Shown here: positions 1 to 32,045 of the stretch, piece after piece
Layout: every line of letters begins with the position of its first letter
Position numbering within the stretch: the stretch's first letter is position 1
NCBI GenBank assembly: GCA_903895845.1
Contig: CAITVK010000057.1
Span: forward strand, 1-46,513
Direction of reading: 5' to 3'
DNA: 46,513 nt
DNA from: an uncultured Chitinophagaceae bacterium
Lineage (GTDB): Bacteria; Bacteroidota; Bacteroidia; Chitinophagales; Chitinophagaceae
Notes under the pieces: model-generated
Told to the model about the DNA's origin: nothing
The model's input: the letters and a program-made list of their open reading frames with translations, nothing else
Databases searched by the model: none
Made by a program: the position numbers and the translations under genes

Positions 1-95
1 AAGGCTTAAATAACTTCTTTTATACGCTGAATAAGTTCTTTTAGGTCTTGAATAAGTTCTTTTAAGCTTCAAATAAGTTCTTTTAAGAGCTGAAA
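1..95. repeat. 21-bp tandem repeat array A1 (cut by window edge)
   Basis: About four head-to-tail units of 21 bp, each with the core AATAAGTTCTTTT (first copy AATAACTTCTTTT) followed by a variable linker of about 8 bases. The same core and period return at about 15370-15590, so the two are copies of one repeat family. No spacers separate the units, which excludes a CRISPR array. The array may continue left of the window. The rest of the gap up to the gene at 273 shows no recognisable feature. Confidence 0.85.
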
Positions 96-272
96 GAAGC
101 CCGAAATAGTTAGGTTTTCGATTACTTAGATACAAAAAAATCGGACTCCGGCAAAAAAGGTTCAACGAGGTAAGGTTATACGGTGCCGATAGCCAACGCA
201 ATTGCCTTTAAACAGTTGAATTAATCTTTACAAGACAAGCACTTATTTTTTCACGGATTAATAGGAAACAAT

Positions 273-965
273 ATGGAAAAAAAGTTTTATCTGCCCGATG
301 GTGACAATGAAAGGGAAGTGTGGTTGACCAATTTTCAGACTGAATTTGCTGCTTTGGCATTGATAACGGCTTGGGGAATTACTGCCCCACAACTGCTTTC
401 GGTGTCGAACGATGCAAATGCCTTTAGGTATAGCCTTGTGTTTTTGGAAGCTGCAAAAGCTTTTGCTAAAACAAGTACCACCACGAAGGATGTGCTGAAT
501 GATGGCGCTTCAACAACTATACCTCAAGCTTTTCCTGTGTTTACACCTCCTGCTGGTGCGCCAACGCCTGTGCCGCCAGGTATTTTTCAGAGAATAACCC
601 TTTTGGTGGGTCAAATCAAGAAGAATGCCTTGTACACAGAAACAGTTGGTAAAGCTTTGAAGATTATCGGTTCGGACATTGTAATCGATTTCTCTACGGC
701 ACAACCAGTGTTGACCCTTGGGTTTGAAGGTGGTCATGTTCATGTTAAATACATAAGAGGTCATGCAGATGGACTCTTGTTGTATAGTATGCGCGGCACA
801 GAAACGGTGTTTACACTTTTGGCTACAGTTACAAAAACCACTTTTATTGATACCCGCCCCAACGAAGTAGTTGGGCAAGCCGAAAAAAGGCAATACCGGG
901 CATTCTTTATGGTGGCTGATGTGATGGTAGGCATAGAAAGCGCTGTATTTAGCATTACTTGCTAA
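273..965 (+). CDS. Hypothetical protein with Fn3-like C-terminus
   Basis: A 230-residue protein that I cannot assign to a named family. It has no signal peptide or membrane segment. Residues 1-130 look helical with a Pro/Thr/Ala-rich stretch near 85-105 (PVFTPPAGAPTPVPPG). The last 100 residues read like a fibronectin type III fold: alternating beta segments, then a TTFIDTR turn, a YRAFF strand and a closing AVFSIT strand. The layout resembles the protein at 44390-45001, so the two may be distant paralogues. The ATG at 273 is the only sensible start. It stands alone, with repeat array A1 upstream and a strong terminator directly downstream. Function unknown; a structural or binding role is only a guess. 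Confidence 0.75.
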   Translation: MEKKFYLPDGDNEREVWLTNFQTEFAALALITAWGITAPQLLSVSNDANAFRYSLVFLEAAKAFAKTSTTTKDVLNDGASTTIPQAFPVFTPPAGAPTPVPPGIFQRITLLVGQIKKNALYTETVGKALKIIGSDIVIDFSTAQPVLTLGFEGGHVHVKYIRGHADGLLLYSMRGTETVFTLLATVTKTTFIDTRPNEVVGQAEKRQYRAFFMVADVMVGIESAVFSITC

Positions 966-984
966 TGGAAATTGATTGAAGTTG

Positions 985-1024
985 AATGGGCAGCAACCTT
1001 AAAAAAGTTGCTGCCCATTTTTTT
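985..1024 (+). terminator. Rho-independent terminator
   Basis: A 13-bp perfect stem (AATGGGCAGCAAC with GTTGCTGCCCATT) around a short A-rich loop, followed by a run of T. It begins 19 bases after the stop codon of the gene ending at 965 and also separates it from the convergent gene ending at 1038. Confidence 0.85.
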
Positions 1025-1037
1025 GATAAGAGCCAAA

Positions 1038-1979
1038 CTATTTTGCCATTTTAAACAATTCCGTCATCTCAGACATCATCTTGGGCAGTACCTTCTGCAT
1101 GGCAATCATCGATAACTCGGTTATTTTTTGCTGTACTATTTTCGTTTCAGGGTCGCGGTGATAAGCAACCAGATAGTCAAGCTCAGCATCGGTAAGGGTT
1201 TTATCATATCTAACCTCCATCCGAAGACTGACTTTCTTAAATATCTCCTGCATAGTTGTTGCAAAAGAAGAGTCGTTGGAAAATTTCTTCATGGTAGAAT
1301 CAAAAATATGCTGCATTTTGTTTCTTTCGGCAGTGTCTTTTATTTGGGTGGGTATAGTATTGCTTGCAAGTGCAGGAATACTCTTTGCAATGGTCTTCAA
1401 CATATCTTTAGTCATCATCAAACTCACCAACGTATCCAACTTTTCTTTCCTTTTTGGATTGAAAACATAAGACTTATAAGATGTATCCTTAAAAGTTTCC
1501 TCTAAACTTCCTTTCGACATTAAATCCCCAGAACTAGTCGTAATCTTTTTATAGGCACTCGATTTTTGATAAGTCAATTGTCTATCAATCTGTGCCTCGG
1601 TAAAGGCGGAATCATATAAAGGCACCGCCTGTTTCTTCATATTATTTATCATGTCCATCATGATTCTTTTGTACTCCACTCTGGCTCTTTGCATCTTATT
1701 ATAAGTGGCAGTATCTTCAAAAGGCTGTACATCTACTGGCTGCAATGTGTTCCCAGTCAATGGCTTACTAACAGAATCTGTGTTGGTTTTCTTTTTATTT
1801 TTTTGCATATTGGCTATTGTCCGATCAAATGCTTTATCAAAACCATCCATCATTCTATTGCTTGTTTGAGTATTGATAGTAAACAACTCTTCTATCTTTT
1901 CTTTTTTTGTTTGAGCAAACATCGATAGGCTTACAACAAGGGAAAGCAGGGTGGCAAGGGAAATCTTTTTCATGAACAT
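1038..1979 (-). CDS. Secreted DUF2059-type protein
   Basis: A 313-residue protein with an N-terminal signal peptide (MKKISLATLLSLVVSLSMFAQ), so it is exported to the periplasm or beyond. The C-terminal region (about 230-300) carries the DUF2059 pattern TDAELDYLVAYHRDPETKIVQQK, where a helical pair ends near a conserved Tyr/His. The middle is charged and helical (Lys/Met-rich). DUF2059 proteins have no established biochemical function. Two in-frame ATGs lie close together, at 1979 and 1973; the second gives a more typical Met-Lys-Lys signal peptide. It converges with the gene ending at 965 and faces away from mrdA, so it is probably monocistronic. Confidence 0.8.
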   Translation of the reverse strand: MFMKKISLATLLSLVVSLSMFAQTKKEKIEELFTINTQTSNRMMDGFDKAFDRTIANMQKNKKKTNTDSVSKPLTGNTLQPVDVQPFEDTATYNKMQRARVEYKRIMMDMINNMKKQAVPLYDSAFTEAQIDRQLTYQKSSAYKKITTSSGDLMSKGSLEETFKDTSYKSYVFNPKRKEKLDTLVSLMMTKDMLKTIAKSIPALASNTIPTQIKDTAERNKMQHIFDSTMKKFSNDSSFATTMQEIFKKVSLRMEVRYDKTLTDAELDYLVAYHRDPETKIVQQKITELSMIAMQKVLPKMMSEMTELFKMAK

Positions 1980-2387
1980 TGTTTTTAATCGTTTGGGGCG
2001 ATTGGTTAATAAATTAATTACGAGACAAATATATTGGGAAAGTAAAGTTGTTTTTATGCTGATTGAAGAATTTATTTGGTTACCCGTCGCTGTTTTGTAA
2101 GTTAAATAGAACTCAGCCTTATCCTAAAATCTTAATTATTTCTTCCCAACAAAACATTTATTCACTATCCAACACTTTGACAGGCATCAGCACAACAAAC
2201 AACTTACATTTGTTTGTGTCGACTTCTTTTTTACTAAAACATTTAAAACAGAAGTCGGCAATGGCGGTAGAAAGGGAAAAGTTACTAGCAGATTGATACA
2301 CATAAAACAATAACAGTCTGTTGATAACTGATTACCGATTACTATTTGCCGTTGGCTATTTTTACGCATTCTTTCACGTGGCAACTT
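1980..2387. other. Intergenic region before mrdA
   Basis: About 400 AT-rich bases between divergent genes. It must hold promoters for both, but I see no clear TAnnTTTG box, hairpin or RNA. Short open frames here have no family signature and are not convincing. Confidence 0.4.
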
Positions 2388-4505
2388 ATGTCTGTATTCA
2401 ATCAAAGTCGTAGTGGCATCATACAAATAGCGTTTGGGTTCGTGTTTCTGGTCATTATCGGGCAGTTGGTGAACCTTCAGGTGTTCTCTGCCAAGTATAA
2501 ACTGGCAGCAGAAAACAACGCCATCTATCGGAAAATAATTTATCCCGACAGGGGCATCATCTACGACAGAAATGGGAAAAGTATTCTCGAAAACACCATC
2601 ATGTACGACTTGGTGGTAACGCCTGTAGAAGCAAAGGGCGTGGATACGCTTAGCCTTTGTAACCTGATGGAGATTGATACTGTTGAGTTTAAACGCCGGA
2701 TGAAAGAAATTGGCTATAAGAACGGCACCGTGAGGCCAAGCGTGTTCGAACCATTGCTCTCTCCCGAAATGTATGCACGCCTGAACGAGAATATGTACAA
2801 GTTTCCAGGCTTTGTATTGAGCGAACGATCGGCCAGAACCTATCCGTACAGCGTTGCAGCCAATGTACTGGGTTATATTGCTGAAGTAGACTCTAGTTTT
2901 CTACGGAAACATGCCGATGAGGGCTATGAAAACGGGGACTATGCGGGCATCACAGGTTTGGAACGTACTTATGAAAAAGTATTGATGGGAGAACGCGGTG
3001 TGAAACGTTTTATTCGTGACAACAAGAGCCGGATTCAAGGCCCTTTCGAAAACGGCAACTACGATACCGCAGCTGTTGCTGGTAGAAACCTTCACCTTAG
3101 CCTCGATGTAGAACTACAGAAGCTTGGGGAGAAACTGATGACCAACAAAGTAGGTAGTATTGTGGCTATCGACCCCAAAACGGGCGGCATCTTGTGCATG
3201 GTGAGTGCCCCCACCTACGACCCCAACTACCTTACCGGGGGACAACGTCGCAAGCACTATGGTGAATTGGCCCTAGACCCCAGATTGCCTCTTATCAATA
3301 GAACAGTAAGCAGTAAATATTCTCCTGGTTCTACTTTTAAAACCATTGTTGGTATCATTGGCCTTACGGAAGGAGTCATCAATGCCCATACCCGTATTGG
3401 TTGTTCGGGCGCTTTCTATGGTTGTGGCAATGGCAAACCAAAATGTTTGGATCCGGGCTATTTCGATTTTAAAGAGGGCATCGCCCACAGCTGCAACACC
3501 TTCTTTGCAACCGTTTATAAAAGAACCCTCGACCAAGAGAAGCTTGGTGGGGCAGATAGTGGATTGAAGAACTTTAATGAGTATGCTTCTTCTTTTGGCT
3601 TGGGGAAAAGATTGGGTGTGGATGTACCGTCCGAAAAGAATGGGAATCTGCCAGTTTCGTCTTATTACCGAAAAATATTTGGTCGCAACTGGAACTCTTG
3701 CAATATCATCTCCAACTCTATTGGTCAGGGCGAAGTTCAGACAACCATCGTGCAGTTGGCCAACGTGATGGCTACCATTGCCAACAGGGGTTACTATTAT
3801 ACACCGCATCTGGTAGACTCTATTGAAGGCGGCGATGATGATGGTATATTGGATACTTTCAAAGTAAAACACTATACAAAGGATGTACCCGATAGCGTTT
3901 TCCAAGTAGTGCAAGATGGGATGCAGGCGGTGATGGAGTTTGGTACGGGAGCTGCTGCGCAAGTGCCAGGCATTGTTGTTTGTGGAAAAACGGGTACGGT
4001 ACAGAACTCTGCTAAAGTAAATGGAGTGATGACCAAACAAAAAGACCATGCTTTCTTTGGGGCATTTGCACCTAGGGACAATCCGAAGATTGCGATTGCC
4101 ATGATCTGTGAGAATGCAGGCTTTGGTGCGGAATCTTCTGCCCCAATTGCGAGCTTGTTGATTGAAAAATACCTGAAGGATTCCATTGTGGAGCCAGACA
4201 GAAAGGCACGTGTGGAAGAACTGGCAAAGAAGAATCTGATTCCTCCGATGATGCGACAAGCAATGGCAAGGATGGACTCCATTAAACAAGCAAAGCAATT
4301 GTTGTTGCAACAGAAGGAAAAAGAGGATGAAGACACGATTGAAGAAGAGATAAAGATAGATACGACCAGTGAGGATACGGCGCCTAAGCAACTGAAACAC
4401 AAGCCAGCAAAAGACTCAGGCAGAAAGGCGTTAGCTTATTCCAATGCGGCTATCCTTACGGATGAAAGAAAAAATATACCTAACAAGAAACCAACAAAGG
4501 GATAA
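2388..4505 (+). CDS. mrdA: Penicillin-binding protein 2 (cell elongation transpeptidase)
   Basis: Class B penicillin-binding protein of 705 residues that cross-links peptidoglycan during lateral wall growth together with RodA. An N-terminal membrane segment (IIQIAFGFVFLVIIGQLVNLQV) anchors it in the inner membrane, followed by the dimerisation domain beginning at DRGIIYDRNG. All three transpeptidase motifs are present: the catalytic STFK with Ser315, SNS at 442-444 and KTG at 534-536. A charged tail of roughly 100 residues (Lys/Glu/Asp-rich, ending in KKPTKG) extends beyond the domain. The frame opens at a TTG at 2346, but the ATG at 2388 directly precedes the membrane anchor and is preferred. 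rodA follows after 6 bases. mreBCD, often upstream in Bacteroidota, are not in this window. Confidence 0.95.
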   Translation: MSVFNQSRSGIIQIAFGFVFLVIIGQLVNLQVFSAKYKLAAENNAIYRKIIYPDRGIIYDRNGKSILENTIMYDLVVTPVEAKGVDTLSLCNLMEIDTVEFKRRMKEIGYKNGTVRPSVFEPLLSPEMYARLNENMYKFPGFVLSERSARTYPYSVAANVLGYIAEVDSSFLRKHADEGYENGDYAGITGLERTYEKVLMGERGVKRFIRDNKSRIQGPFENGNYDTAAVAGRNLHLSLDVELQKLGEKLMTNKVGSIVAIDPKTGGILCMVSAPTYDPNYLTGGQRRKHYGELALDPRLPLINRTVSSKYSPGSTFKTIVGIIGLTEGVINAHTRIGCSGAFYGCGNGKPKCLDPGYFDFKEGIAHSCNTFFATVYKRTLDQEKLGGADSGLKNFNEYASSFGLGKRLGVDVPSEKNGNLPVSSYYRKIFGRNWNSCNIISNSIGQGEVQTTIVQLANVMATIANRGYYYTPHLVDSIEGGDDDGILDTFKVKHYTKDVPDSVFQVVQDGMQAVMEFGTGAAAQVPGIVVCGKTGTVQNSAKVNGVMTKQKDHAFFGAFAPRDNPKIAIAMICENAGFGAESSAPIASLLIEKYLKDSIVEPDRKARVEELAKKNLIPPMMRQAMARMDSIKQAKQLLLQQKEKEDEDTIEEEIKIDTTSEDTAPKQLKHKPAKDSGRKALAYSNAAILTDERKNIPNKKPTKG

Positions 4506-4511
4506 TCCACT

Positions 4512-5870
4512 ATGGCTACAAGTACACATAGAAATAATAATCAGATTTCTCCCGGTATAGATTGGGTTATCGTATGGGTTTATGCCGCATTGGTTGCTAT
4601 TGGCGTATTGTGTATTTTCATGGTAGAGTACAAGCCTGGTATCAATATCCTGCAATCCTTTTTGGGGGGCAAAACAAATTATAGTAAGCAATTGATGTTT
4701 AGCAGCATCTGTGTGGTGATGGCGATGTTTATCCTGCTTGCGGACAGTAAGCTCTTTACTGCATTTGCCAATCTGATGTACACCTTTGGTATCTTTCTGA
4801 TGCTCGCTACATTTGTAATTGGTAAAAGCATCAATGGTTCCAAGAGTTGGATACCCCTTGGGGGAGGCTTTAACCTGCAACCAGCAGAGATTTGTAAGAT
4901 ATTTACTTCCTTGGCATTGGCTAAGTTCTTATCCCGACAGGAAACTGATTTCAGCAAGCTTCGTTCTCAAATAATTGGAGGCTGTATCTCTTTGGCACCA
5001 GCGGTTTTGTCTGTTTTTCAGAATGAAACAGGTTTGGCGTTGGTGTACTTTTCCTTCTTTATTGTGATGTATCGCGAAGGGTTGCCTCCCGGCTTATTGA
5101 TTATGGGCTTCTCTTTTGCAGCATTGGTTATTGCTACGTTGGTTGTAGAACCCAATACCCTGGCCATTGCATTGACTGTGATTGCGGGTGCTACCATCTA
5201 TTTCACCCGAAGGGCAAGAAAGAGAAACAGGAACCTGCTGGCAACAATTTTGGTTGTGTGGGCGCTTTGTGTGGGGGTTCAGCGTTTTGCAGTACCGTAT
5301 ATCTTCAATAACGTTTTTCAGTGTTACCAAAGCACACGTATCTTTAGTATGGTGGGCAAGGATTATGATTGCAGCCAGAACAGAAGTGCCATGCGAAGGG
5401 TTGCCGACAAAGAGAAGGCCGCCAAAAAGCCGGATGATTACAACGTACGCCAAAGTAAAATAGCCATCGGTTCGGGCGGATTGGTTGGTAAGGGCTTCCT
5501 GAAAGGCACACAGACAAGAGGTAAATATGTTCCCGAGCAGCATACCGACTTTATTTTTACCAGTATTGGCGAGGCATTTGGTTTGGCAGGCTGTGGGGTG
5601 TTCCTTGGGTTGTATCTGTTTTTACTACTTCGTATCATCAACACTGCCGAGAAACAGCGAAGTACATTTAGTAGGGTATATGCCTATTGTGTAGCCTGTA
5701 TCCTGTTCTTTCATATCGTGGTGAATGTGTGTATGACCATTGGGCTGTTCCCCATCATTGGTATCACGCTGCCGCTCATCAGCTATGGGGGGTCTTCACT
5801 TTTAAGCTTCACTATTTTGCTTTTTATCTTAATCAGATTAGATGCCGACAGGCAGATGGTATTGCGTTAA
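4512..5870 (+). CDS. rodA: RodA, SEDS-family peptidoglycan glycosyltransferase
   Basis: A 452-residue polytopic membrane protein of the RodA/FtsW/SpoVE (SEDS) family, which polymerises glycan strands from lipid II with PBP2 as partner. About ten hydrophobic segments are visible. The diagnostic C-terminal block (MTIGLFPIIGITLPLISYGG, then SS) is intact, as is the IGSGGLVGKGF...EQHTDFIFTSIGEAFGLAG region of the large extracellular loop. That loop is longer than in proteobacterial RodA and contains a Lys/Asp-rich stretch (KEKAAKKPDDYN). RodA rather than FtsW is inferred from the mrdA neighbour six bases upstream; the two are surely co-transcribed. Confidence 0.94.
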   Translation: MATSTHRNNNQISPGIDWVIVWVYAALVAIGVLCIFMVEYKPGINILQSFLGGKTNYSKQLMFSSICVVMAMFILLADSKLFTAFANLMYTFGIFLMLATFVIGKSINGSKSWIPLGGGFNLQPAEICKIFTSLALAKFLSRQETDFSKLRSQIIGGCISLAPAVLSVFQNETGLALVYFSFFIVMYREGLPPGLLIMGFSFAALVIATLVVEPNTLAIALTVIAGATIYFTRRARKRNRNLLATILVVWALCVGVQRFAVPYIFNNVFQCYQSTRIFSMVGKDYDCSQNRSAMRRVADKEKAAKKPDDYNVRQSKIAIGSGGLVGKGFLKGTQTRGKYVPEQHTDFIFTSIGEAFGLAGCGVFLGLYLFLLLRIINTAEKQRSTFSRVYAYCVACILFFHIVVNVCMTIGLFPIIGITLPLISYGGSSLLSFTILLFILIRLDADRQMVLR

Positions 5871-6005
5871 GCCTTCCTCAGCAACAATACCGAACACATT
5901 TATAAACATCATTACAGGTATTTAATTTTAAGAATTAGTCTTTAGTATAAATACTTTATGAAAGTTTTAAGGTGAAAGTAAAATGTATCTCGTATTTTTA
6001 TCGAT

Positions 6006-6746
6006 ATGGTAACGATAGCATTTTATAACCTAAAGGGCGGCGTTGGCAAAACAACTTCTGCAATCAATCTTGCTTATCTGGCAGCCCAAGAGGGATACAA
6101 GACATTAATCTGGGATTTAGACCCGCAAGGCTCTACTTCCTTTTACTTGGGCGTAAGCACTACGGTAAAGAATGAATCGAAAAAAGTACTGAAAGGTGAT
6201 CTGGATTTAGCAGAAACCATACAGCCAACCCTATACAAGAACTTATACGTAATTCCTTCCGACTTGTCTGCTCGTCACGCAGATGTATTGCTCAGCGAAG
6301 GGAAGCAAAGCAAAAAGAGATTGCTGTCACTCCTCTCCTCCCTGAAAGATGCTTTCTATCTGGTTATTATAGATTCTCCTCCCGGAATATCCCTTTTGCA
6401 CGATAATATCTTTAACGCCGTCAACTGGATATTGTTGCCAAATATTCCTACCACACTCTCCATCCGTTCTTATGAAACTGTAGCAAATTATTTTACAGAA
6501 CATGAGTTTGATAAGAACAAAATAAGATGTTTCTTCAACATGGTCGACAGCAGGAAGAACCTGCATCACGAAACAATGGGATTTTTTTTCCAGAACACAC
6601 AGTTCTTTAAAAACTTTATTCCTTACCTCAGCGATATAGAAAAAATGGGGATGAATGAAGCTCCATTGGAAACTTTTGCCAAAAGCAGTTATGCCGCCAA
6701 ATGCTATCGAGACTTGTGGGCCGAAATAAAGAAATGCTGTTTGTAG
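6006..6746 (+). CDS. ParA/MinD-family ATPase, orphan
   Basis: A 246-residue P-loop ATPase of the ParA/Soj family. The deviant Walker A motif KGGVGKTT is at residues 10-17, followed by the WDLDPQGS (A-prime) segment and VIIDSPPG (Walker B). Such proteins dimerise on ATP, bind DNA or membrane, and position cargo such as chromosome origins, plasmids or protein clusters. No ParB gene or obvious parS-like palindrome lies nearby, so this is an orphan ParA and its cargo cannot be told from the sequence. The start ATG at 6006 places the Walker motif at the usual distance. It is co-oriented with rodA but separated by 135 bases. Confidence 0.88.
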   Translation: MVTIAFYNLKGGVGKTTSAINLAYLAAQEGYKTLIWDLDPQGSTSFYLGVSTTVKNESKKVLKGDLDLAETIQPTLYKNLYVIPSDLSARHADVLLSEGKQSKKRLLSLLSSLKDAFYLVIIDSPPGISLLHDNIFNAVNWILLPNIPTTLSIRSYETVANYFTEHEFDKNKIRCFFNMVDSRKNLHHETMGFFFQNTQFFKNFIPYLSDIEKMGMNEAPLETFAKSSYAAKCYRDLWAEIKKCCL

Positions 6747-9593: not shown

Positions 9594-9620
9594 GAATATG
9601 ATTAAACAAATGTTGTATCA

Positions 9621-9790
9621 GCTTAAGCAGATGCGACAAAAGCTTTGACAGATGCCGTAAAAGCTTAAGCTTTTGCAACGGAAGCTTAAGCAGATGCGAC
9701 AAAAGCTTTGACAAATGCCGTAAAAGCTTAAGCTTTTGTAACGGAAGCTTAAGCAGATGCGGCAAAAGCTTTGATATAAGGAATAAAAGG
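9621..9790. repeat. 21-bp tandem repeat array B
   Basis: Seven contiguous units of exactly 21 bp starting at 9621, 9642, 9663, 9684, 9705, 9726 and 9747, then a degenerate eighth. Three unit types alternate (starting GCTTAAGCAGATGCG, GCTTTGACAGATGCC and GCTTAAGCTTTTGCA), giving a 63-bp higher-order repeat present just over twice. All units begin with GCTT and end in AAAA or GGAA. The GCTTAAGC and AAGCTT parts are palindromic. The sequence is unrelated to arrays A and C, but the period is the same. It fills most of the gap between the PKD protein and engB. Confidence 0.9.
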
Positions 9791-15369: not shown

Positions 15370-15590
15370 GATTGTTTCAGTCAGTAAACCAGTTGTTTCG
15401 GAGCTTAAATAATTTCTTTTGAGTCGCAAATAAGTTCTTTCAAGGCTCAAATAAGTTGTTTTAGAGCGCAAATAAGTTCTTTCATGACGTAAATAACTTC
15501 TTTCAAGACGTAAATAACTTCTTTTAAGACTCAAATAAGTTCTTTTAAGACTAGAATAAGTTCTTTTGCGGTGTAAAAGAACTTATTTGA
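15370..15590. repeat. 21-bp tandem repeat array A2
   Basis: About eight well-kept 21-bp units plus two degenerate ones at the left. Each has the core AATAAGTTCTTTT or a one- or two-base variant (AATAACTTCTTTC, AATAAGTTGTTTT), then a variable linker such as AAGACTCA or AGAGCGCA. The final unit is inverted: AATAAGTTCTTTT at 15555-15567 faces AAAAGAACTTATT at 15575-15587, making a 13-bp hairpin with a 7-base loop. It is the same family as array A1 at the left edge of the window. The array starts about 35 bases after the glycosyltransferase stop. Read on the minus strand it yields an open frame of heptads (TYLRLER-like), which I take as an artefact of the period. Confidence 0.9.
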
Positions 15591-16117: not shown

Positions 16118-16570
16118 ATGAGTTTAGAATTAAAGGTAATGACCGAGTTGAAGGAAGCGATGAAAGCAAAAGATGATGCTGCATTGCGTGGACTGAGGGC
16201 AATAAAAGCCGAGATAATAAAAGCAAAAACAGAACCTGGTGCAGGTGGAGAAATATCTGAGGAAGGTGAGTTGAAGCTGTTGCAGAAAATAGTAAAACAA
16301 CGTAAGGATAGTCTGGAAATCTTCAAACAACAAAACAGGGAAGACCTTGCAACGAAAGAAGCAGAGGAAATTGCCATCATAGAAAAGTTCTTGCCAAAGC
16401 AATTGACAGAGGCAGAACTGAAGGAAGCAATTGCACCAATCATTGCTCAAGTTGGTGCGACATCTGTTGCCGATTTGGGAAAAGTAATGGGCATTGCCTC
16501 CAAACAACTAGCAGGAAAAGCAGACGGAAAGGCAATATCAGCAGTTGTAAAAGAGTTATTAAGTAAATAA
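16118..16570 (+). CDS. GatB/YqeY domain-containing protein
   Basis: A 150-residue, all-helical cytosolic protein of the YqeY family, related to the C-terminal tRNA-binding domain of GatB (Asp/Glu-tRNA amidotransferase). The YqeY pattern is clear: LKEAMKAKDDAALRGLRAIKAEI, then LLQKIVKQRKDSLEIFKQQNR, EIAIIEKFLPKQLTEAEL, and a final VMGIASKQLAGKADGKAIS. Stand-alone YqeY proteins are common and have no proven role, although tRNA-related function is presumed from homology. The length is typical. gldC lies upstream and a CvpA-like gene downstream, each separated by an intergenic inverted repeat. Confidence 0.9.
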   Translation: MSLELKVMTELKEAMKAKDDAALRGLRAIKAEIIKAKTEPGAGGEISEEGELKLLQKIVKQRKDSLEIFKQQNREDLATKEAEEIAIIEKFLPKQLTEAELKEAIAPIIAQVGATSVADLGKVMGIASKQLAGKADGKAISAVVKELLSK

Positions 16571-16572
16571 CT

Positions 16573-16654
16573 AGTGATTAACGATTAGTGTTTAGTGATT
16601 AGTTTTTGACAGACGTTGCTTACACTAATTACTAAACACTAACCACTAATCACT
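16573..16654. repeat. 31-bp imperfect inverted repeat (AGTGATTAG type)
   Basis: The left arm 16573-16603 and right arm 16624-16654 are complementary at 27 of 31 positions, with a 20-base loop. Each arm is itself built of AGTGATTAG/TTAGTGTTTAGT steps. It fills nearly the whole gap between the yqeY-like and cvpA-like genes. Confidence 0.7.
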
Positions 16655-16660
16655 GTTGCA

Positions 16661-17194
16661 ATGTTCATAGACATTCCCTATTTTATCATGTTGTTGCTTG
16701 CTGCCTACAAGGGCTATAACAAGGGGTTGATTGTAGCCGTTTTTTCATTTGTAGGAATGATTGTTGGATTGGCTGCCGCAATAAAACTATCTGCTTTTGT
16801 AGGAAACTGGTTGCACACAAATACACATATCAGTGCCACTTGGTTACCCGTATTATCCTTTATAGTTGTTTTTATTGGGTTTGTGATACTGATAAGATTA
16901 ATTGCAGGGATTTTGCGAAAGAGTGTTCAGTTTATGCTGATGGGCTGGGCAGACAAACTAGGAGGGGTGTTGTTGTATGCCGCTTTGTACACAATGATTT
17001 TTAGCGTTGTTCTTTTTTATGCACTGCAATTGAAAGTGCTTACCGAGGAATCAATTGCCACTTCAAAATGCTATGGCTTTGTTAAACCTTGGGCCTCCTT
17101 TGTAATGAATAGCTTAGGAAAAGTATTCCCCATTTTCAAGGGGTTGTTCACACAATTGGAGAATTATTTTCAAACTTCAGCTAGTAAATTATAG
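16661..17194 (+). CDS. CvpA-family membrane protein
   Basis: A 177-residue inner-membrane protein with four hydrophobic segments, matching the CvpA family (named for colicin V production in Escherichia coli). The opening IDIPYFIMLLLAAYKGYNKGLIVAVFSFVG is characteristic, with the conserved GxxKG turn between the first two segments. A C-terminal helical tail (FKGLFTQLENYFQ) faces the cytoplasm or periplasm. In other bacteria CvpA proteins affect envelope integrity, but no molecular activity is established. The ATG at 16661 lies seven bases after an inverted repeat, so upstream transcription may or may not pass through. Confidence 0.85.
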   Translation: MFIDIPYFIMLLLAAYKGYNKGLIVAVFSFVGMIVGLAAAIKLSAFVGNWLHTNTHISATWLPVLSFIVVFIGFVILIRLIAGILRKSVQFMLMGWADKLGGVLLYAALYTMIFSVVLFYALQLKVLTEESIATSKCYGFVKPWASFVMNSLGKVFPIFKGLFTQLENYFQTSASKL

Positions 17195-22841: not shown

Positions 22842-22849
22842 ACCCTCAT

Positions 22850-24348: not shown

Positions 24349-24351
24349 TTA

Positions 24352-25766: not shown

Positions 25767-25829
25767 AATTTTAAACTTAAGATAAGCTATTGCTAACTTA
25801 TAAACCTACAACTTAATACGTAAAACTTA

Positions 25830-26516
25830 CTAACTCATGTACAACCTCGAATATAACCTTTCATGCTGCATTGAATGAATGTCAAATGCAGTGGAACATA
25901 GGCCAATCATTTCTTCATCTGGCTGTATGTTTTCAATTGCTAACTCATTAATTAATGAATGTAGGGAAAACAAAATGGCTTGTCCCGATTGCTGACTCAA
26001 GGGAATCAATTTCACGCAATTGGTCACAAATCCAACCGCCGCATTATAATAAAAGCCTGTCAAGGTATCCTGCTTAGAAACTTGGAGGGCATTCGCCAAT
26101 AACCCAAATGCAATACAATAATGCCCAACAACCTGTTGCGTTTTAATGGCATCAGCATACTGATGAATACATTGATTGTCCGAAAGAGGCTGGAATATCT
26201 TTAACAAACGCAGACCTAATTTATTGCTAGCCATCCGCATTTCTTTCGGAAGCTTCACTGCATTACAATAATCATCCAACTCCATTATTCTTGTCTGATT
26301 GTTGGTTGTTGCTGCATCATAAGTCAATGAAACAAAGGCAGCATCGGTATAATGAATGTTCTTAGAGAGCATCTCTATAATAAAAGCCTTCGCACTCTCT
26401 GTGTCTTTTACTATTCCCTTCTGCACATACGTTTCCAACCCTGCTGAATGAGAAAACCCACCAATCGGTAAGGTTGGGTCTGTTAAGTGCAACAAGTTCA
26501 ATAATGAGTTATTCAT
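25830..26516 (-). CDS. ureF: Urease accessory protein UreF
   Basis: A 228-residue all-helical protein that bridges UreD and UreG in the urease activation complex. The family hallmark LPIGGFSHSAGLETYVQKGIV is at the N-terminus, and GHYCIAFGLLANAL plus YYNAAVGFVTNCVKLIPLSQ are recognisable in the C-terminal half. Length is standard. It overlaps the end of ureE by eight bases, so translation of the two is coupled. Confidence 0.93.
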   Translation of the reverse strand: MNNSLLNLLHLTDPTLPIGGFSHSAGLETYVQKGIVKDTESAKAFIIEMLSKNIHYTDAAFVSLTYDAATTNNQTRIMELDDYCNAVKLPKEMRMASNKLGLRLLKIFQPLSDNQCIHQYADAIKTQQVVGHYCIAFGLLANALQVSKQDTLTGFYYNAAVGFVTNCVKLIPLSQQSGQAILFSLHSLINELAIENIQPDEEMIGLCSTAFDIHSMQHERLYSRLYMS

Positions 26517-27003
26517 TGGCAGTCAGCTTCATTATTTTAGTAAATAAGGTCTCATTTCCGTGAGGTGACACAGTTGTTCGCAACGGCTGTATCAGTTTAC
26601 GATCCTCTTGTTTAATATGATATCCCTGGGCAGTCAGTAGTCGCGACAAAGGCATTTCGAAGGGAACCAATACCTCCTCATTATCAAAGAATAATGGCAA
26701 GTGCTTATTGCCAATTTCATAGCAGACAGATGCCATTTCGAACATATTCTTAGGACTAATTACGATACAACTACACGCCAATACCTCTACAGCAATGATA
26801 GTGGTTTCATCTTCAAACAATACGTCACCTTGCGTAAGTGCAGGGTTTTCTTGCATGAATTTCAAAGAAACATCCCTGCCTGATGCCGTACGTTTTCTTT
26901 GTATGCGTTTATTGGTCTCAAACCACTCCAACGCCAACCAGTCAATGCTTTTATGAGGGATGGGATAGGTATTGATATTCCCAATTTTATGTTGAATGAG
27001 CAT
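26509..27003 (-). CDS. ureE: Urease accessory nickel chaperone UreE
   Basis: A 164-residue UreE nickel metallochaperone. The N-terminal peptide-binding domain and the C-terminal metal domain are both present; the conserved interface His is in GNKHLPLFF, and YEIGNKHLP fits the family GNRHxP motif. The C-terminus (SPHGNETLFTKIMKLTANE) has only one His, so the His-rich tail of Klebsiella-type UreE is absent. Nickel binding would then rest on the dimer-interface His. The ATG at 27003 lies 132 bases after ureC, a gap filled by an inverted repeat. Confidence 0.9.
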   Translation of the reverse strand: MLIQHKIGNINTYPIPHKSIDWLALEWFETNKRIQRKRTASGRDVSLKFMQENPALTQGDVLFEDETTIIAVEVLACSCIVISPKNMFEMASVCYEIGNKHLPLFFDNEEVLVPFEMPLSRLLTAQGYHIKQEDRKLIQPLRTTVSPHGNETLFTKIMKLTANE

Positions 27004-27045
27004 GAAGCAAATTGATAATTAATAATTGACAATTGATACAAGCAC

Positions 27046-27112
27046 TTGCCACTAATTGCACCAATAACCACGAATGTATTTTATTAGTGCTTATTTGTGC
27101 AATTCGTGGCAA
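27046..27112. repeat. Inverted repeat inside the urease operon (ureC-ureE gap)
   Basis: Arms 27046-27076 and 27082-27112 are complementary at about 26 of 31 positions around a 5-base loop. The arms contain spaced copies of CACNAAT-like steps (GCCACTAATTGCAC and CACGAATG). A related repeat lies in the ureB-ureC gap. An AATTGATAATTAATAATTG stretch precedes it at about 27010. Confidence 0.75.
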
Positions 27113-27135
27113 AATAACCGAGATGGCTTCTCAAT

Positions 27136-28851
27136 TTAAAACAAGAAATATCGTTGCGCTAAAGGCAATACCGCCATCGGTTCGCAGGTAATCACTTCGC
27201 CATCAACCTTCACTTCATAGTTCTCCGGATTCACTTCTATGTTGGGGGTAGCGTCATTATGAATCAAATCTTTCTTGCCAATATTCCTGCAGTTCTTCAC
27301 GGGCAATACCATTTTACTCAATCCATAACCTTCTACTACCTTATTATCCAAAGACAATTGCGATACAAATGTGGCACAAGTACTAAACAATGCCTTTCCA
27401 TAAGACCCAAACATGTGTCTATAAATAACAGGTTGTGGCGTAGGGATAGACGCATTCGGATCACCCATTCTTGCCGCTATTATCATCCCACCCTTCAGCA
27501 TCATCTCTGGTTTTACACCAAACATAGATGGTTTCCACAATACAATATCAGCTAGTTTACCTACTTCCAACGAACCTACATATTCTGAGATACCGTGAGA
27601 GATTGCTGGGTTAATCGTGTATTTAGAAACAAATCTTTTCACCCTAAAGTTATCATTATCCTTGCCTTCATCTTCTGGCAATGCACCACGTTGCACCTTC
27701 ATTTTATGTGCCGTTTGCCATGTGCGGGTAATTACTTCACTCACCCTGCCCATCGCTTGCGAATCGCTACTCATCATACTAAACACACCCATATCGTGCA
27801 ATATATCTTCGGCAGCTATCGTTTCTGGACGAATGCGGCTATCTGCAAACGATACATCTTCGGGAACAGTTTTATCCAAGTGGTGACAAACCATCAACAT
27901 ATCCAAGTGTTCATCAATGGTATTCACCGTATAAGGACGCGTTGGATTGGTGGACGACGGCAACACATAAGGATACATCGACGCCTTAATGATGTCTGGT
28001 GCGTGACCGCCACCTGCTCCTTCCGTATGGAAAGTATGTATCACACGCCCATCTATTGCCTTGATGGTATCTTCCAAAAAGCCTCCTTCATTCAATGTAT
28101 CCGTGTGGATGGCCACTTGTACATCATACTTATCCGCTATTTTCAACGAAGCATCTATCACCGCAGGGGTACTGCCCCAATCTTCGTGTATCTTCAAGCC
28201 TAAAGCACCTGCTGCAATTTGTTCTTCCAATGGTTCTAGGCTAGCACAGTTGCCTTTGCCAAAGAAGCCAAGGTTCATCGGAAAAGCATCTGCCGCTTCC
28301 AGCATCTTTTGAATATTCCAGGCACCCGGCGTTACTGTTGTTGCATTGGTACCATCTGCAGGACCAGTTCCTCCACCAATCATGGTAGTGATGCCACTAA
28401 ACAACGCATGGTCAATTTGCTGCGGACAAATGAAATGTATATGCGTATCAATACCTCCAGCAGTTGCTATCAATCCAAAACCTCCATGCACTTCGGTGCT
28501 TGCACCAATCACCATATTAGGCGTGATGCCTTCCATCGTGTCGGGATTGCCAGCCTTGCCAATGCCCGCTATCTTACCATCTTTAATGCCGATATCTGCT
28601 TTCACAATACCCCAATGATCTATAATCATCACGCCAGTAATCACAAAATCGAGTACACCATCTGCACGCTTTGCAGTAGCCGATTGCGCCATACCATCAC
28701 GAATGGTTTTGCCGCCGCCAAACTTGGCTTCATCGCCATAAACGGTATAGTCTCTTTCTATTTCAATAAACAATTCCGTATCGCCCAAGCGCACTTTATC
28801 GCCTGTTGTGGGACCATACATGTTGGCATATTTTGTTCTACTGATGTTCAT
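27136..28851 (-). CDS. ureC: Urease subunit alpha
   Basis: The 571-residue catalytic subunit of urease, which hydrolyses urea to ammonia and carbamate. The nickel ligands are all in place: HTHIHF (two His), GLKIHEDWG with the carbamylated Lys220 and the next His, the His of [19 protein letters not shown], and the Asp of [11 protein letters not shown]. The flap carries the catalytic His in MVCHHLDK. The start [25 protein letters not shown] is diagnostic. It sits 94 bases after ureB and 132 before ureE. Separate alpha, beta and gamma genes are the usual bacterial form. Confidence 0.98.
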
Positions 28852-28878
28852 TTTTGATGTTTTAAGTTTTGAATATTA

Positions 28879-28941
28879 GCCACCAATAGCTCTAATAATC
28901 ACGAATGTTTTTTACTATTGTTAATTAGTGATATTCGTGGC
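28879..28941. repeat. Inverted repeat inside the urease operon (ureB-ureC gap)
   Basis: The left arm 28879-28907 and right arm 28915-28941 are imperfectly complementary. Both ends carry the same steps as the repeat at 27046-27112: GCCACCAAT at the outer left, CACGAATG at the inner left and ATTCGTGGCA at the outer right. Confidence 0.65.
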
Positions 28942-28945
28942 AGTT

Positions 28946-29299
28946 CTAAAAGCTTGAAACGGCTTCCAACGCTTTCTCCTTCACGCCCGCATCATCGATG
29001 GCGCCATCCACAAGGTTATTAAAGCCTACAATTGTCTTGTTGCCTGCAAATTCCACCAACTCAATATCCTTCTCTTCACCGGGTTCAAAACGAACTGCTG
29101 TGCCTGCCGCAATGTTCAAACGCATCCCATAAGCCAATGGCCTATCAAACTTCATCTGCCTATTCACCTCAAAGAAATGAAAATGCGAGCCTATCTGCAC
29201 AGGCCTGTCACCCGTATTCACCACCGTCAACTTCACCGTTGCCCTACCCACATTACATTCAATGTCGCCCTTTGCCAGTATATATTCTCCAGGAATCAT
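28946..29299 (-). CDS. ureB: Urease subunit beta
   Basis: A 117-residue urease beta subunit that packs on the alpha subunit and supports the active-site flap. The conserved core is intact: [57 protein letters not shown] and the closing [13 protein letters not shown]. It lies 29 bases after ureA and starts at an ATG. Confidence 0.97.
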
Positions 29300-29328
29300 G
29301 TTTGTTGTTTTAAGTTATCAGTTTAAAA

Positions 29329-29631
29329 TTATCTTATGGGATCATGCACCGTTACCAGTTTCGTTCCATCGGGGAAGGTGGCTTCTATTTGTACATCGTG
29401 AATCATTTCGGCTATTCCTTCCATTACATCGTCCCGAGTAAGGATTGTTGCGCCAAACTGCATGAGTTCTGCAACCGATTTTCCATCACGTGCTGCCTCT
29501 TGCAAACGCGAACTTATCAATGCAATTGACTCTGGATAATTCAGTTTCAAGCCCCTTGCCTTTCTTTTCTCAGCCAATTCCCCAGCAAGGAATAATAATA
29601 ATTTTTCTGTTTCTCGTGGTGAGAGGTGCAT
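29329..29631 (-). CDS. ureA: Urease subunit gamma
   Basis: A 100-residue urease gamma subunit, all helical with a short C-terminal sheet. The family markers are clear: [38 protein letters not shown], and [33 protein letters not shown]. As the first gene of the leftward operon it marks the promoter side, where about 600 bases without coding sequence separate it from the next gene. No exact TAnnTTTG box stands out upstream. Confidence 0.97.
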
Positions 29632-29929
29632 ATATCAAATAATTTATCTAGATAAAAGAAATGTAAAGGAGGCAAAATAGTTATTATTCTGCAATAATTA
29701 AAATTAAGTACATATATTTCTATAAATTTTATACGTGTACTGATTAAAAAAGAAAAATGCAAAGCTAATTTTCAATCATCTCTCAGTATTATCTATCGCG
29801 CGTAATTTCTTTTCTCAATCCGCTACAAACAAACAACAGGAATCAATTAAAAAAATAATCATCATTTCAATGGTTTATTAAGTTGTTTTCTATATTTTTA
29901 CTCGGTAAGAAGGAGATAGTGTCAAAAAG
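29632..29929. other. Intergenic region upstream of ureA
   Basis: About 300 AT-rich bases that must hold the urease promoter. I find no clean operator palindrome and no NikR-like site that I would defend. Confidence 0.4.
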
Positions 29930-30111
29930 AATTCTTTTAGACGCCCTTTAGCAATCAAGAATGTAAGATTCAGCGATATACTAGGGCGAATAGTTCAGAA
30001 AACGAGCCGAGAGGATACATAGCCTCAAATTAATTTGATAGTGACTTATAACGAATGCTGCTATATTCAGAATTATATTCTGGCAGATTGGTTATAAGTC
30101 ACTATTTTTTT
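29930..30111 (+). ncRNA. Candidate structured non-coding RNA or leader
   Basis: Successive hairpins are visible on the plus strand: CGCCCT (29942-29947) with AGGGCG (29983-29988), GAGG (30011-30014) with CCTC (30023-30026), and a long rod from 30038 to 30105. The rod has a perfect 15-bp outer stem and inner stems CTGC/GCAG and CAGAAT/ATTCTG, and is followed by a T-run. This is either an independent small RNA of about 180 bases, divergent from ureA, or an attenuated leader of the gene at 30228. I cannot match it to a known RNA family. Confidence 0.35.
30038..30111 (+). terminator. Long hairpin with T-run
   Basis: ATAGTGACTTATAAC (30038-30052) pairs perfectly with GTTATAAGTCACTAT (30091-30105), then TTTTTT. 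The loop holds a further nested stem. GTCACTAT occurs again right after the T-run (30112-30119), so the left arm has an alternative partner. Confidence 0.65.
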
Positions 30112-30227
30112 GTCACTATAGCTTTTTATTTCCAAGATCGACAGTTGTAGTGTTGGCTTCAATCGGTTCAATCAGTCTGATATTGCTATCCCTTTATTTT
30201 TATTAATTAGTAACTAACCTTAGAAAG

Positions 30228-30725
30228 ATGAACCCACTTTTAACAAACACACTTTGTGTACTGATTTTGACATTAACCCTTGCACAAGCAGGCTATTCTC
30301 AGAGAAATAGCCCTTGGAAAAAACAACCTTATGAGATTGTCTCAGGTGTATATGTGTGTGTTGGCATGCACAAATATAGCCTTACACTCGGCCAAGGGTT
30401 TTCGGTTTATCTGAGAAATATAAACAGAAAACCAGTTGTTGTAACAGGCACACTAAAGGCTATTACTGTTTGTGACAGTGTAATAACAACCACATTTGTA
30501 ACAAAACTTGCACCCGGACAAATAAGATCTGGGGGCAATATGAAATTCACGAACGGCAATAGCCAGACAGGTGTAGTTACGCCCCTGGACTGTGCCGGAG
30601 TAACTTTTTATGATCCTAAAACGAAGCACAAATTTGTAAATAGAATAAAGCAAGTTGCTCTAGAAGATTTGATGGTGAAGAACGCTGCTACTACACGAAA
30701 TGAGACCATTGCAAAAGTTAAATAG
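30228..30725 (+). CDS. Hypothetical secreted protein
   Basis: A 165-residue protein with a signal peptide (MNPLLTNTLCVLILTLTLAQAG, cleaved near GYSQ). The mature part looks like a small beta-rich domain (VSGVYVCVGMHKYSLTL, GFSVYLRNI, KPVVVTGTLKAI) with four Cys that could form disulfides, and a short charged tail. I do not recognise a family. The ATG at 30228 follows the candidate RNA by about 115 bases. It is followed by nested inverted repeats and a terminator-like hairpin, so it is probably a single-gene transcript. Confidence 0.65.
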   Translation: MNPLLTNTLCVLILTLTLAQAGYSQRNSPWKKQPYEIVSGVYVCVGMHKYSLTLGQGFSVYLRNINRKPVVVTGTLKAITVCDSVITTTFVTKLAPGQIRSGGNMKFTNGNSQTGVVTPLDCAGVTFYDPKTKHKFVNRIKQVALEDLMVKNAATTRNETIAKVK

Positions 30726-30792
30726 GGCAATAAAGAGATTTCAATGCATCTACCATTAGCAATCTTTATTTATTTAAACCTTAGTAACTGCC

Positions 30793-30837
30793 AGCCCATG
30801 ACAGGAGTCATGAGCTAGGCCCCGACATTCATGGGCT
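30793..30837. repeat. Nested competing inverted repeats
   Basis: AGCCCATGA (30793-30801) pairs with TCATGGGCT (30829-30837), while CATGAC (30798-30803) can instead pair with GTCATG (30807-30812). GAGCTAGG and GGGCTAGG also occur as direct repeats. The structures are mutually exclusive. Confidence 0.5.
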
Positions 30838-30847
30838 AGGTGAGCGG

Positions 30848-30882
30848 AGGGTCAACAACCTTTTGAAGGTTGTTGACCCTTT
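30848..30882 (+). terminator. Terminator-like hairpin
   Basis: AGGGTCAACAACCTT (30848-30862) and AAGGTTGTTGACCCT (30866-30880) form a perfect 15-bp stem with a 3-base loop. Only a short T-run follows. It lies between the convergent genes ending at 30725 and 30910 and may serve either strand. Confidence 0.6.
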
Positions 30883-30909
30883 GTAGATTGGGCCAGATGG
30901 TGTAAATTA

Positions 30910-31530
30910 CTATTTCATTTTTTCTTCCGTCATTCTTATGAGTGTAATTATTTTATTCGCTTCTTCAAACATGTAGCTAAGTTTTGAAGTATGATTGTAA
31001 ATATTCTCCATTTTATCCTTAATAGTATATTTCCCTTTAGTGGTAAGTAAATATAGCTTCACTATCCCCTTTTCTGAAGTAAGCGCTGTATCAACTTTAT
31101 CTGCCGATGGAATAAATGTTTCTGCTTTTTTAATAAACTCTTGACCAGCTTGTTTTACATTATCATGCTGACCAGCTCCGATTATGCCAGTACCTGTACT
31201 GAAATAAAGGCTTACATCTCCGGTTTTGAAGGATACGAGTGTAATAATGGCCTTGCCTTCATAATCCCAATCCATTAGAGCTCCATACAAAACTTCTTTG
31301 TCGCCAACATTGGGCAAGTTTAATTGATTGTAATGAATGGAATAAGCTAATTTTTTTAAACCTTCATAAGGATTTTGGTCAAGCCTTGTTTCTTTCGGTC
31401 TTGCTGTATCTTCTGAAATTTGCATCGAAACAGGGTCATTTCTTTTTGCCTTGTCTTTCCTTTTAATCGAAAAAGCAACCAAAAGCCCGATTAAAACAAT
31501 TGCAACTGCCATAATGTAAGTCATCTTCAT
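30910..31530 (-). CDS. Hypothetical membrane-anchored protein
   Basis: A 206-residue protein with one N-terminal hydrophobic segment (YIMAVAIVLIGLLVAFSI) followed by a basic stop (KRKDKAKR), so it is anchored in the inner membrane, or it may be an uncleaved signal. The rest is soluble: a conserved-looking YGALMDWDYEGKAIITLVSFKTGDVSLYFSTGTGIIGAG block, then a helical C-terminus. This block resembles small Bacteroidota proteins of unknown function that sit near stress or secretion genes, but I cannot name the family. Repeat array C lies upstream. Confidence 0.6.
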   Translation of the reverse strand: MKMTYIMAVAIVLIGLLVAFSIKRKDKAKRNDPVSMQISEDTARPKETRLDQNPYEGLKKLAYSIHYNQLNLPNVGDKEVLYGALMDWDYEGKAIITLVSFKTGDVSLYFSTGTGIIGAGQHDNVKQAGQEFIKKAETFIPSADKVDTALTSEKGIVKLYLLTTKGKYTIKDKMENIYNHTSKLSYMFEEANKIITLIRMTEEKMK

Positions 31531-31702
31531 AGTTTAGTTTTAATTACCATTTTTAGATTACCGAAAGCATTCCCCATTCCAGTTTCCCTTCAAACATTTT
31601 CACACCGCTTACCAAAGATGAGGGATAATTGATAAATAAATGAATATTTTATAACTATAAAGAAAGGATTCTCTACAAAAGCCCTCTATAACCTCATTTA
31701 TT

Positions 31703-32045
31703 GGCTCACTTTGTTATAAGTGAGCCTTACAATGCTCATAGTAAGCCTCACAATGAACGAGTGAGTGATTTATTGACAGAATGAACGATTTATTGACCGA
31801 GTGAGCCTTACAATGCTCATAGTAAGCCTTACAATGAACGAGTGAGCGATTTATTGACAGAATGAACGATTTATTGACCAAGTGAGCCTTACAATGCTCA
31901 TAGTAAGCCTTACAATGAACGAGTGAGTGATTTATTGACAGAATGAACGATTTATTGACCGAGTGAGCCTTACAATGCTCATAGTGAGCCTTACAATGAA
32001 CGAGTGAGCCTTACAATGAACGAGTGAGTGATTTATTGACAGAAT
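31703..32045. repeat. 20-21-bp tandem repeat array C with 81-bp superunit
   Basis: Units of 20 or 21 bases run without spacers from 31720. Two unit kinds alternate: GTGAGCCTTACAATG-type and GTGAGTGATTTATTG-type. Four units make an 81-bp superunit that starts at 31720, 31801, 31882 and 31963, with exact 81-base spacing; the fourth is rearranged, with extra GTGAGCC units. An inverted GGCTCACT (31703-31710) opens the array and pairs with AGTGAGCC (31719-31726). It lies between the metalloprotease terminator and the gene at 30910. The remainder of this gap (31531-31702) shows nothing else. Confidence 0.92.

What the first reader, a model, noticed from the sequence alone, without database searches (positions are those of the whole stretch)
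1..32045. Four intergenic arrays share a 20-21-bp period but not a sequence
Arrays at 1-95, 9621-9790, 15370-15590 and 31703-32045 all use contiguous units of 20 or 21 bp. Arrays A1 and A2 are one family (core AATAAGTTCTTTT); B (GCTTAAGC type) and C (GTGAGCCTTACAATG type) are unrelated to it and to each other. B has a 63-bp and C an 81-bp superunit. B and A2 begin about 30 bases after a stop codon, and C lies just beyond a terminator. A period near two helical turns would place a repeated site on one face of the DNA. Unrelated sequences with a shared period suggest a common generating or selecting mechanism rather than one transposed element. I know of no named system of this kind.
Basis: partly seen in the sequence, partly recalled or inferred. 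Interest (0 to 1): 0.75.

Follow-up and report, generated by a model that had tools for sequence, protein, structure and literature searches.

The report
Evenly spaced 21-bp repeat arrays chromosome-wide
This uncultured bacterium carries, about every 11,000 bases, a short stretch of noncoding DNA built from 21-letter repeats whose spelling differs from place to place while repeat length, array size and spacing stay alike, which suggests that the geometry of the DNA rather than its sequence is what matters.

Summary
The four arrays exist, and A, B and C are multi-site families. In 1.45 Mb of the genome (36%) I find 110 arrays of 70 bp or more in 62 sequence clusters; 92 of 110 have an effective period of exactly 21.0 bp. 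Density is 74/Mb here and 31-106/Mb in small samples of six congeners, but 2 in 1.30 Mb from 76 other loci of related bacteria. This is the known, unexplained 'constant repeat size, variable sequence' class (20-21 nt) of Subirana & Messeguer, so 'no named system' is wrong. The 3-prime placement is not supported. New here: regular spacing (60 intervals, CV 0.55 vs 0.85 expected, none below 3 kb vs about 10 expected); unrelated arrays at some orthologous sites; units with a conserved core and variable spacer; 40 of 80 arrays fold better than column-permuted controls. Best explanation: chromosome-architecture elements selected for phase (two helical turns), length and spacing. The function is inferred, and no protein partner was found.

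The parts
1..95 (+). Array A1, 21-bp units, core AATAAGTTCTTTT; cut by the contig edge
   Evidence: TRF 9-87; the same array starts contigs C28, C34 and C51
9620..9774 (+). Array B, 21-bp units in a 63-bp superunit, palindromic AGCTTAAGCT
   Evidence: TRF; related arrays at C114:22668, C119:25977, C42:18943, C62:9558, C95:19375
15391..15567 (+). Array A2, 21-bp units, in the gap between a glycosyltransferase and a gldC-like gene
   Evidence: TRF; Pfam of the neighbours; unrelated arrays in the same gap in G004 and G002, no array in G010, G003, G005, G012
15554..15588 (+). Inverted unit at the right end of A2 (AAATAAGTTCTTTT, 7-nt loop, AAAAGAACTTATTT; the last A2 unit differs at the first base)
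   Evidence: sequence; inverted-unit test, score 17
31703..31726 (+). Inverted piece at the left end of C (GGCTCACTT, 6-nt loop, AAGTGAGCC)
   Evidence: sequence; scores only 9, below the cut of 12
31719..32045 (+). Array C, 20-21-bp units in an 81-bp superunit
   Evidence: TRF 31719-32028; related arrays at C114:67476, C92:4213, C87:41, C135 start

Best explanation
The four arrays belong to a chromosome-wide set (by extrapolation some 300-380 in the 4-Mb genome) of noncoding architecture elements. SHOWN in the sample: period 21.0 bp in most arrays, length about 180 bp (8-9 units), nearly always one per intergenic gap, spaced about every 11 kb, unrelated unit sequences, units with a conserved core and a variable spacer of fixed length, foldable dyads in about half, near absence outside the genus, and turnover of unit sequence at some fixed positions. 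INFERRED: each array puts 8-9 copies of its core on one face of the helix, so that a cooperatively binding protein, helped by DNA that is curved because its repeat is exactly two turns, forms a stiff or bent node; the nodes act as boundaries or plectoneme anchors of supercoil domains of about 10 kb. Phase, length and spacing are selected; the letters drift, are homogenised within an array, and differ between arrays, perhaps also because identical arrays would recombine.
For: Period exactly 21.0 in 92 of 110. Spacing: arrays of 130 bp or more, 60 intervals on ten contigs, CV 0.551 vs 0.85 +- 0.09, none below 3 kb vs about 10, 45 within 6-17 kb vs about 23.6, p=2.5e-4 in three nulls with at most one array per gap; a TRF-independent scan fills holes; similar spacing in 80 kb of a congener. 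Length narrow, median 181 bp for period 21. Core and spacer: p=1e-11, n=75. Same gap, unrelated units, similar length in other species; synteny p=0.004. Model curvature 0.72 deg/bp vs 0.27 for random genome pieces, about 0.3 at period 20 or 22. 10-kb supercoil domains: abstract of PMC3420936 in the listing.
Against: No protein found: HU, ParB, SbcD and Y1 transposase do not track the arrays. Cores differ between about 48-62 clusters, which one sequence-specific protein cannot read; yet conserved cores argue against a purely sequence-free shape. Arrays of period 20 or 22 exist and lose the curvature. The nearest species lacks A2. With the sensitive scan 6 of 86 intervals are below 3 kb and 3 above 20 kb, and no placement null was run on that set. 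Six of the ten synteny comparisons are one gap. No Hi-C, RNA or binding data.
Confidence: 0.45

Rival explanations
1. Non-adaptive satellites: slippage, template switching at hairpins and unequal exchange generate and homogenise arrays; 21 bp reflects the replication or repair machinery of this genus, and the arrays have no function.
For: Superunits of 42, 63 and 84 bp and lag-42 identity above lag-21 show ongoing expansion; one-unit difference between the near-identical arrays of C28 and C34; inverted end units in 24 of 119 arrays of own and congeners vs 0 of 119 controls; compensated arms could arise by hairpin templating.
Against: Does not predict regular spacing, the narrow length, the fixed spacer length with free spacer sequence or arrays at the same sites in other species with unrelated units. 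SbcD loss does not track the arrays.
Confidence: 0.25
2. Purely DNA-shape elements: any 21.0-bp repeat is curved whatever its sequence and pins plectoneme tips; no dedicated protein reads the cores.
For: Curvature follows mostly from the period (0.61 for column-shuffled periodic arrays vs 0.72 real vs 0.31 dinucleotide-shuffled); no shared motif.
Against: Conserved cores beside variable spacers; no 10.5-bp A/T harmonic; wedge parameters are recalled.
Confidence: 0.12
3. Nonautonomous mobile elements kept apart by target immunity or by site preference.
For: Families A, B and C recur at several sites; arrays present or absent at orthologous gaps.
Against: Neighbours are of different clusters in 82 of 84 pairs and still keep apart, so sequence-specific immunity cannot do it; period and length agree among unrelated units; Y1 transposase copy number does not track the arrays; ends and target duplications could not be resolved.
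Confidence: 0.1
4. RNA-level elements (3-prime UTR hairpins, terminators, small RNAs).
For: 40 of 80 arrays fold better than column-permuted controls; PMC8161180 proposes small RNAs for the class.
Against: No sense/antisense difference in 53 tandem arrays (p=0.16); no gap-type preference; the window has no Rfam match at the arrays.
Confidence: 0.06
5. Coding heptapeptide repeats (21 = 7 codons).
For: Slightly more open frames than column-permuted arrays (1.96 vs 1.49 of 6, p=7e-4).
Against: 94 of 110 arrays fall in gaps when excised, eight in an ORF; periods 20, 20.5 and 22 exist; the long repeats inside large ORFs here have periods of 126-153 bp.
Confidence: 0.02

Closest known systems
Constant-size, variable-sequence bacterial tandem repeats ('satellites') of 20-21 nt (Subirana & Messeguer, PMC8161180; abstract, sections 3.3 and 4 and passages seen; the J Bacteriol 2020 paper is not held)
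   Same: Noncoding, 20-21 nt, several unrelated families per genome, species-specific, conserved short motif per unit, function unknown
   Different: Density: 29 such arrays in 4.36 Mb of B. weihaiensis (table passage; other criteria) against 74/Mb here; regular spacing, unit replacement at orthologous sites and dyads are not reported in what I saw
REP/BIME elements with RAYT transposases (PMC2817692, abstract and passages)
   Same: Extragenic, palindromic, tandem modules, proposed chromosome role (gyrase, IHF)
   Different: REPs share one sequence per cognate RAYT; here 62 clusters and no link with Y1 transposase
ParR/parC plasmid centromeres (PMC5016525, passages) and plasmid iterons (recalled: 19-22-bp direct repeats)
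   Same: Tandem repeats read by a protein that wraps the DNA; repeat sequences differ between plasmids
   Different: One locus beside its own par or rep gene (par: passage); here on the order of hundreds of sites and no known protein
Intergenic tandem repeats behind deletions in lake Planctomycetota (PMC9426551, passages)
   Same: Intergenic tandem repeats in uncultured lake bacteria
   Different: Another phylum; period not given in the passages seen

Membership tests
Constant-size variable-sequence satellites, 20-21 nt | Repeat length constant at 20-21 nt | tested here: met
   92 of 110 at 21.0, 13 at 20.0-20.67, 5 at 21.25-22
Constant-size variable-sequence satellites, 20-21 nt | Several families per genome with unrelated sequences | tested here: met
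   62 clusters among 110 arrays
Constant-size variable-sequence satellites, 20-21 nt | Not coding | tested here: met
   94 of 110 in gaps after excision
[quoted passage not shown]
   core/spacer test, p=1e-11 over 75 arrays; singly p<0.05 in 21 of 75
Constant-size variable-sequence satellites, 20-21 nt | Species-specific families | tested here: inconclusive
   about 1-2 in 1.30 Mb outside the genus; inside the genus six of the 21 multi-member clusters hold arrays of more than one species
REP/BIME | One shared palindromic sequence in high copy with a cognate RAYT | tested here: not met
   62 clusters; Y1_Tnp 2 matches in this genome and no pattern across relatives
Supercoil-domain boundary elements | Spacing on the scale of 10 kb, more regular than chance | tested here: met
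Supercoil-domain boundary elements | Block supercoil diffusion or mark domain borders in vivo | not testable with these tools
   needs crosslinking, contact maps or a diffusion assay
ParR/parC-like centromere | Cognate binding protein encoded next to the repeats | not tested
   neighbours of the window arrays are a PKD/T9SS protein, a GTPase, a glycosyltransferase, a GldC-like protein and a Met-zincin; other sites not examined

The most novel reading that the evidence does not exclude
A bacterial chromosome is scaffolded by some hundreds of evenly spaced nodes defined by geometry alone: 8-9 repeats of exactly two helical turns, about one node per 11 kb, with selection on phase, length and spacing while the sequence of each node is free to be replaced. 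This would be a sequence-independent, satellite-like system of chromosome domains in bacteria.
Probability: 0.33. Interest if true: 0.92.

Novelty: new variant of a known kind. Interest (0 to 1): 0.74.

Why it matters
The 20-21-nt bacterial satellites have been an unexplained oddity. Regular spacing, together with arrays that persist at a site while their units are replaced, points to selection on geometry and makes the nucleoid hypothesis testable with period-shifted arrays and contact maps. If right, domains of a bacterial chromosome could be read from sequence alone, and satellite-like DNA would have a structural role outside eukaryotes.

Tried and rejected
A 3-prime or terminator role as a rule: arrays follow gap length, not gap type. 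RNA strand signature: none. A 10.5-bp A/T harmonic: none. Descent from heptamer repeats: no excess at lags 7 or 14. A motif shared by the arrays: the best 5-mer is in 7 of 48 clusters, control maximum 5.4 +- 1.0. SbcD, Y1 transposase, HU and ParB: none tracks the arrays. Simple target immunity: unrelated neighbours also keep apart. Insertion ends or target duplications: flanks in congeners too diverged. The first dyad test (62 of 144 at p<0.05) has a weak null for superunits, so I rely. The first spacing null let several arrays fall in one gap; I rely. Synteny by DNA flanks gave 2 of 7 vs 0 of 17, p=0.08; gene-pair synteny 3 of 10 vs 2 of 111, p=0.004, with six of the ten being the A2 gap in different congeners and both of the two being heptamer-rich versions of the window gap 16570-16661. 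Rows dropped: arrays under 70 bp and long 126-bp ones; contigs with fewer than 3 arrays in the spacing tests (14 contigs kept at 70 bp, 10 at 130 bp).
Full report
WHAT THE WINDOW IS. The window is one whole contig (C57) of a 4.01-Mb, 138-contig, 99.3% complete genome. Its nearest named relatives are MAGs labelled Chitinophagaceae; contigs of the congeners G010 and G007 agree in number and length with CAISCV010000038.1 and CANCPA010000014.1.

THE FOUR ARRAYS. TRF confirms A1 9-87, B 9620-9774, A2 15391-15567 and C 31719-32028, periods 21, 21/63, 21/63 and 20/81. A1 is cut by the contig edge: contigs C28, C34, C51 and C57 begin in nearly the same array, so the assembly broke there. C-type units likewise stand at the starts of C87 and C135. 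All three families recur elsewhere in the genome.

GENOME-WIDE. I read 1.45 Mb (36%) of the genome in 36 contigs. Part of these contigs had come up through array-pattern hits, so I give two less biased densities too: 45 arrays in 583 kb on six contigs that came up through hits outside arrays (77/Mb), and 8 in 168 kb on contigs taken by number (48/Mb). Of 121 TRF arrays of 80 bp or more, 107 have a top period of k x 20-22 bp (three of these are 126-bp repeats in large ORFs of C74). The working set is 110 arrays of 70 bp or more, the long 126-bp ones dropped. Effective period: 21.0 in 92, 20.0-20.67 in 13, 21.25-22 in 5. A scan that does not use TRF (identity at lags 21 and 42 against lags 18, 24, 39 and 45) finds 102 peaks; four control lag pairs find 0-3 each. 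There is no excess at lags 7, 10, 11 or 14, so the unit is not built from smaller ones. By BLAST the 110 arrays fall into 62 clusters, 43 of them single arrays; a looser cut gives 48 clusters for 101 arrays, one of them with 19, and no k-mer is widely shared beyond the control.

WHO HAS THEM. Samples of six congeners (38-204 kb each) give 31-106 arrays/Mb; 76 other loci of related bacteria, 1.30 Mb, give 2 by the TRF criterion and 1 by the lag scan. Among what I sampled, the burst is confined to this genus.

WHERE THEY LIE. When arrays are cut out and genes are called, 94 of 110 fall in intergenic gaps and eight in an ORF: tandem 54 (54.2 expected from gap length), divergent 30 (26.5), convergent 10 (13.2). 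In tandem gaps they avoid the last 40 bp before a start codon (3 vs 11.8) and are not enriched within 40 bp of the stop (14 vs 11.8 of 52), though they lie on average nearer the stop (mean 0.42 of the gap, KS p=0.005). Two gaps hold two or more, 90 hold one.

SPACING. This is the main new result. Arrays of 130 bp or more (60 intervals on ten contigs) have an interval CV of 0.551 against 0.85 +- 0.09 when arrays are put at random in the real gaps, at most one per gap; no interval is below 3 kb (about 10 expected) and 45 lie within 6-17 kb (about 23.6 expected). Three weightings of the gaps agree, p=2.5e-4 each, the limit of 4000 draws. With all arrays of 70 bp or more (79 intervals, 14 contigs) CV is again 0.551 vs 0.85-0.86, with 4 below 3 kb vs about 15. 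With the sensitive scan added (118 sites, 13 new) 86 intervals have mean 10.5 kb and CV 0.49; a 23-kb hole of C114 gets a site that splits it into 12.5 and 10.8 kb. Against this: that set has 6 intervals below 3 kb and 3 above 20 kb, a 31-kb hole in C28 stays, and I compared it only with an exponential expectation. In one congener, 80 kb of G006:C4 hold arrays at 16.6, 32.0, 40.9, 46.0 and 57.5 kb and two weaker signals near 77-78 kb. Adjacent arrays are of different clusters in 82 of 84 pairs. By extrapolation the genome has some 300-380 arrays.

ANATOMY. Arrays of period 21 and 95 bp or more have median length 181 bp (n=85), the 16 others 294 bp (p=2e-4). Units have a conserved core and a variable spacer of fixed length: the variability of neighbouring columns is correlated (0.18 vs -0.05 permuted, p=1e-11, n=75; singly p<0.05 in 21 of 75). 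In family A the core is about AAAAGAACTTATT, in C114:38054 about ATATGTTTTC. Forty of 80 arrays fold better than arrays with permuted columns at p<0.05. Examples of dyads: AAAAGCTTAAGCTTTT+GTGAC in the B family (C95) and CCTGTTCACGTGAACAGG in C12. An inverted unit stands within 60 bp of an end in 24 of 119 arrays (own and congeners) vs 0 of 119 controls, A2 among them. RNA folding shows no strand bias (53 tandem arrays, p=0.16).

TURNOVER AT FIXED SITES. In the glycosyltransferase|gldC gap the window has A2 (177 bp), G004 an unrelated 21-bp array of 177 bp and G002 an unrelated one of 192 bp; G010 (nearest), G003, G005 and G012 have none. C121:78580 and C51:11689 face differing 21/42-bp arrays at the same sites in G006. 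C12:5117 keeps period 41 in G010 with fewer units, and its palindrome reads there CCAGTTAACGTTAACAG and CCTCGTCACGTGACGAGG: arms changed, dyad kept. Inside the genome, places with similar flanks carry arrays of different clusters (C111:38690 and C119:25977; C28:21148 and C28:25424); C114:67476 shares its right flank with C121:21381 and part of it with C42:55718, all of period 20. In gene-pair synteny 3 of 10 gaps with an own site are periodic in the congener vs 2 of 111 without (p=0.004); the sample is small and six of the ten are the A2 gap. By DNA flanks it is 2 of 7 vs 0 of 17 (p=0.08).

MECHANISM. Shown: geometry (21.0 bp, about 180 bp, about 11 kb) is kept while letters change. Inferred: selection on geometry. 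A repeat of exactly two turns puts every core on one face, and it also makes any sequence curved: model curvature is 0.72 deg/bp vs 0.27 for random 180-bp genome pieces and about 0.3 if the same units are given period 20 or 22; column-shuffled periodic arrays reach 0.61, so the curve comes mostly from the period (wedge parameters recalled, so indicative only). Conserved cores argue that more than curvature is at stake, most simply cooperative protein binding. The spacing is close to the 10-kb supercoil domains named in the abstract of PMC3420936 (listing). No candidate protein was found.

KNOWN OR NEW. PMC8161180 (abstract, sections 3.3 and 4, and passages) describes 20-21-nt noncoding tandem repeats of constant size and variable sequence in many bacterial groups, with species-specific families, a conserved short motif per unit and no known function; it notes two helical turns and suggests a nucleoid protein or small RNA. 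The arrays meet four of its features and one is inconclusive, so I file them there, as a dense variant. I found no report of regular spacing or of unit replacement at orthologous sites: searches, and word searches inside PMC8161180. The J Bacteriol 2020 paper on the class is not held and may contain more; strain comparisons in PMC8161180 do report partial conservation of 52-nt repeats.

Noticed in passing
window 16572-16654: Two facing heptamer-type arrays (TAGTGTTTAACGAT, then ACACTAACCACTAA) downstream of a YqeY-like ORF (name recalled); 25 arrays of period 7 or 14 in the own sample, others in congeners
   Followed up: partly
window 28407-28705: Rfam match to 5_ureB_sRNA (RF02514, 44.9 bits) on + opposite the ORF 27136-28851 on -; may only reflect a conserved gene
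   Followed up: no
window 41065-41331: One of the two HU-family genes (PF00216) of this genome
   Followed up: no
C74:36493-45919, C28:106827-107590, C95:24-2227: Large ORFs with coding tandem repeats of 126-153 bp, related sequences in congeners
   Followed up: no
window 1-336 and C51:1-336: After the array, the two contigs share about 135 identical bases and then run on with similar sequence into similar ORF starts: a duplicated locus that carries the array
   Followed up: partly
C57:31566, C114:67324, C92:4147: C-family arrays share sequence left of the array (about 82% over 154 bp between C57 and C114), so the copied piece is longer than the array
   Followed up: partly
G000-G012: SbcD (TIGR00619) reaches its cut-off in only 4 of 13 genomes of the genus (G007, G008, G009, G011)
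   Followed up: partly
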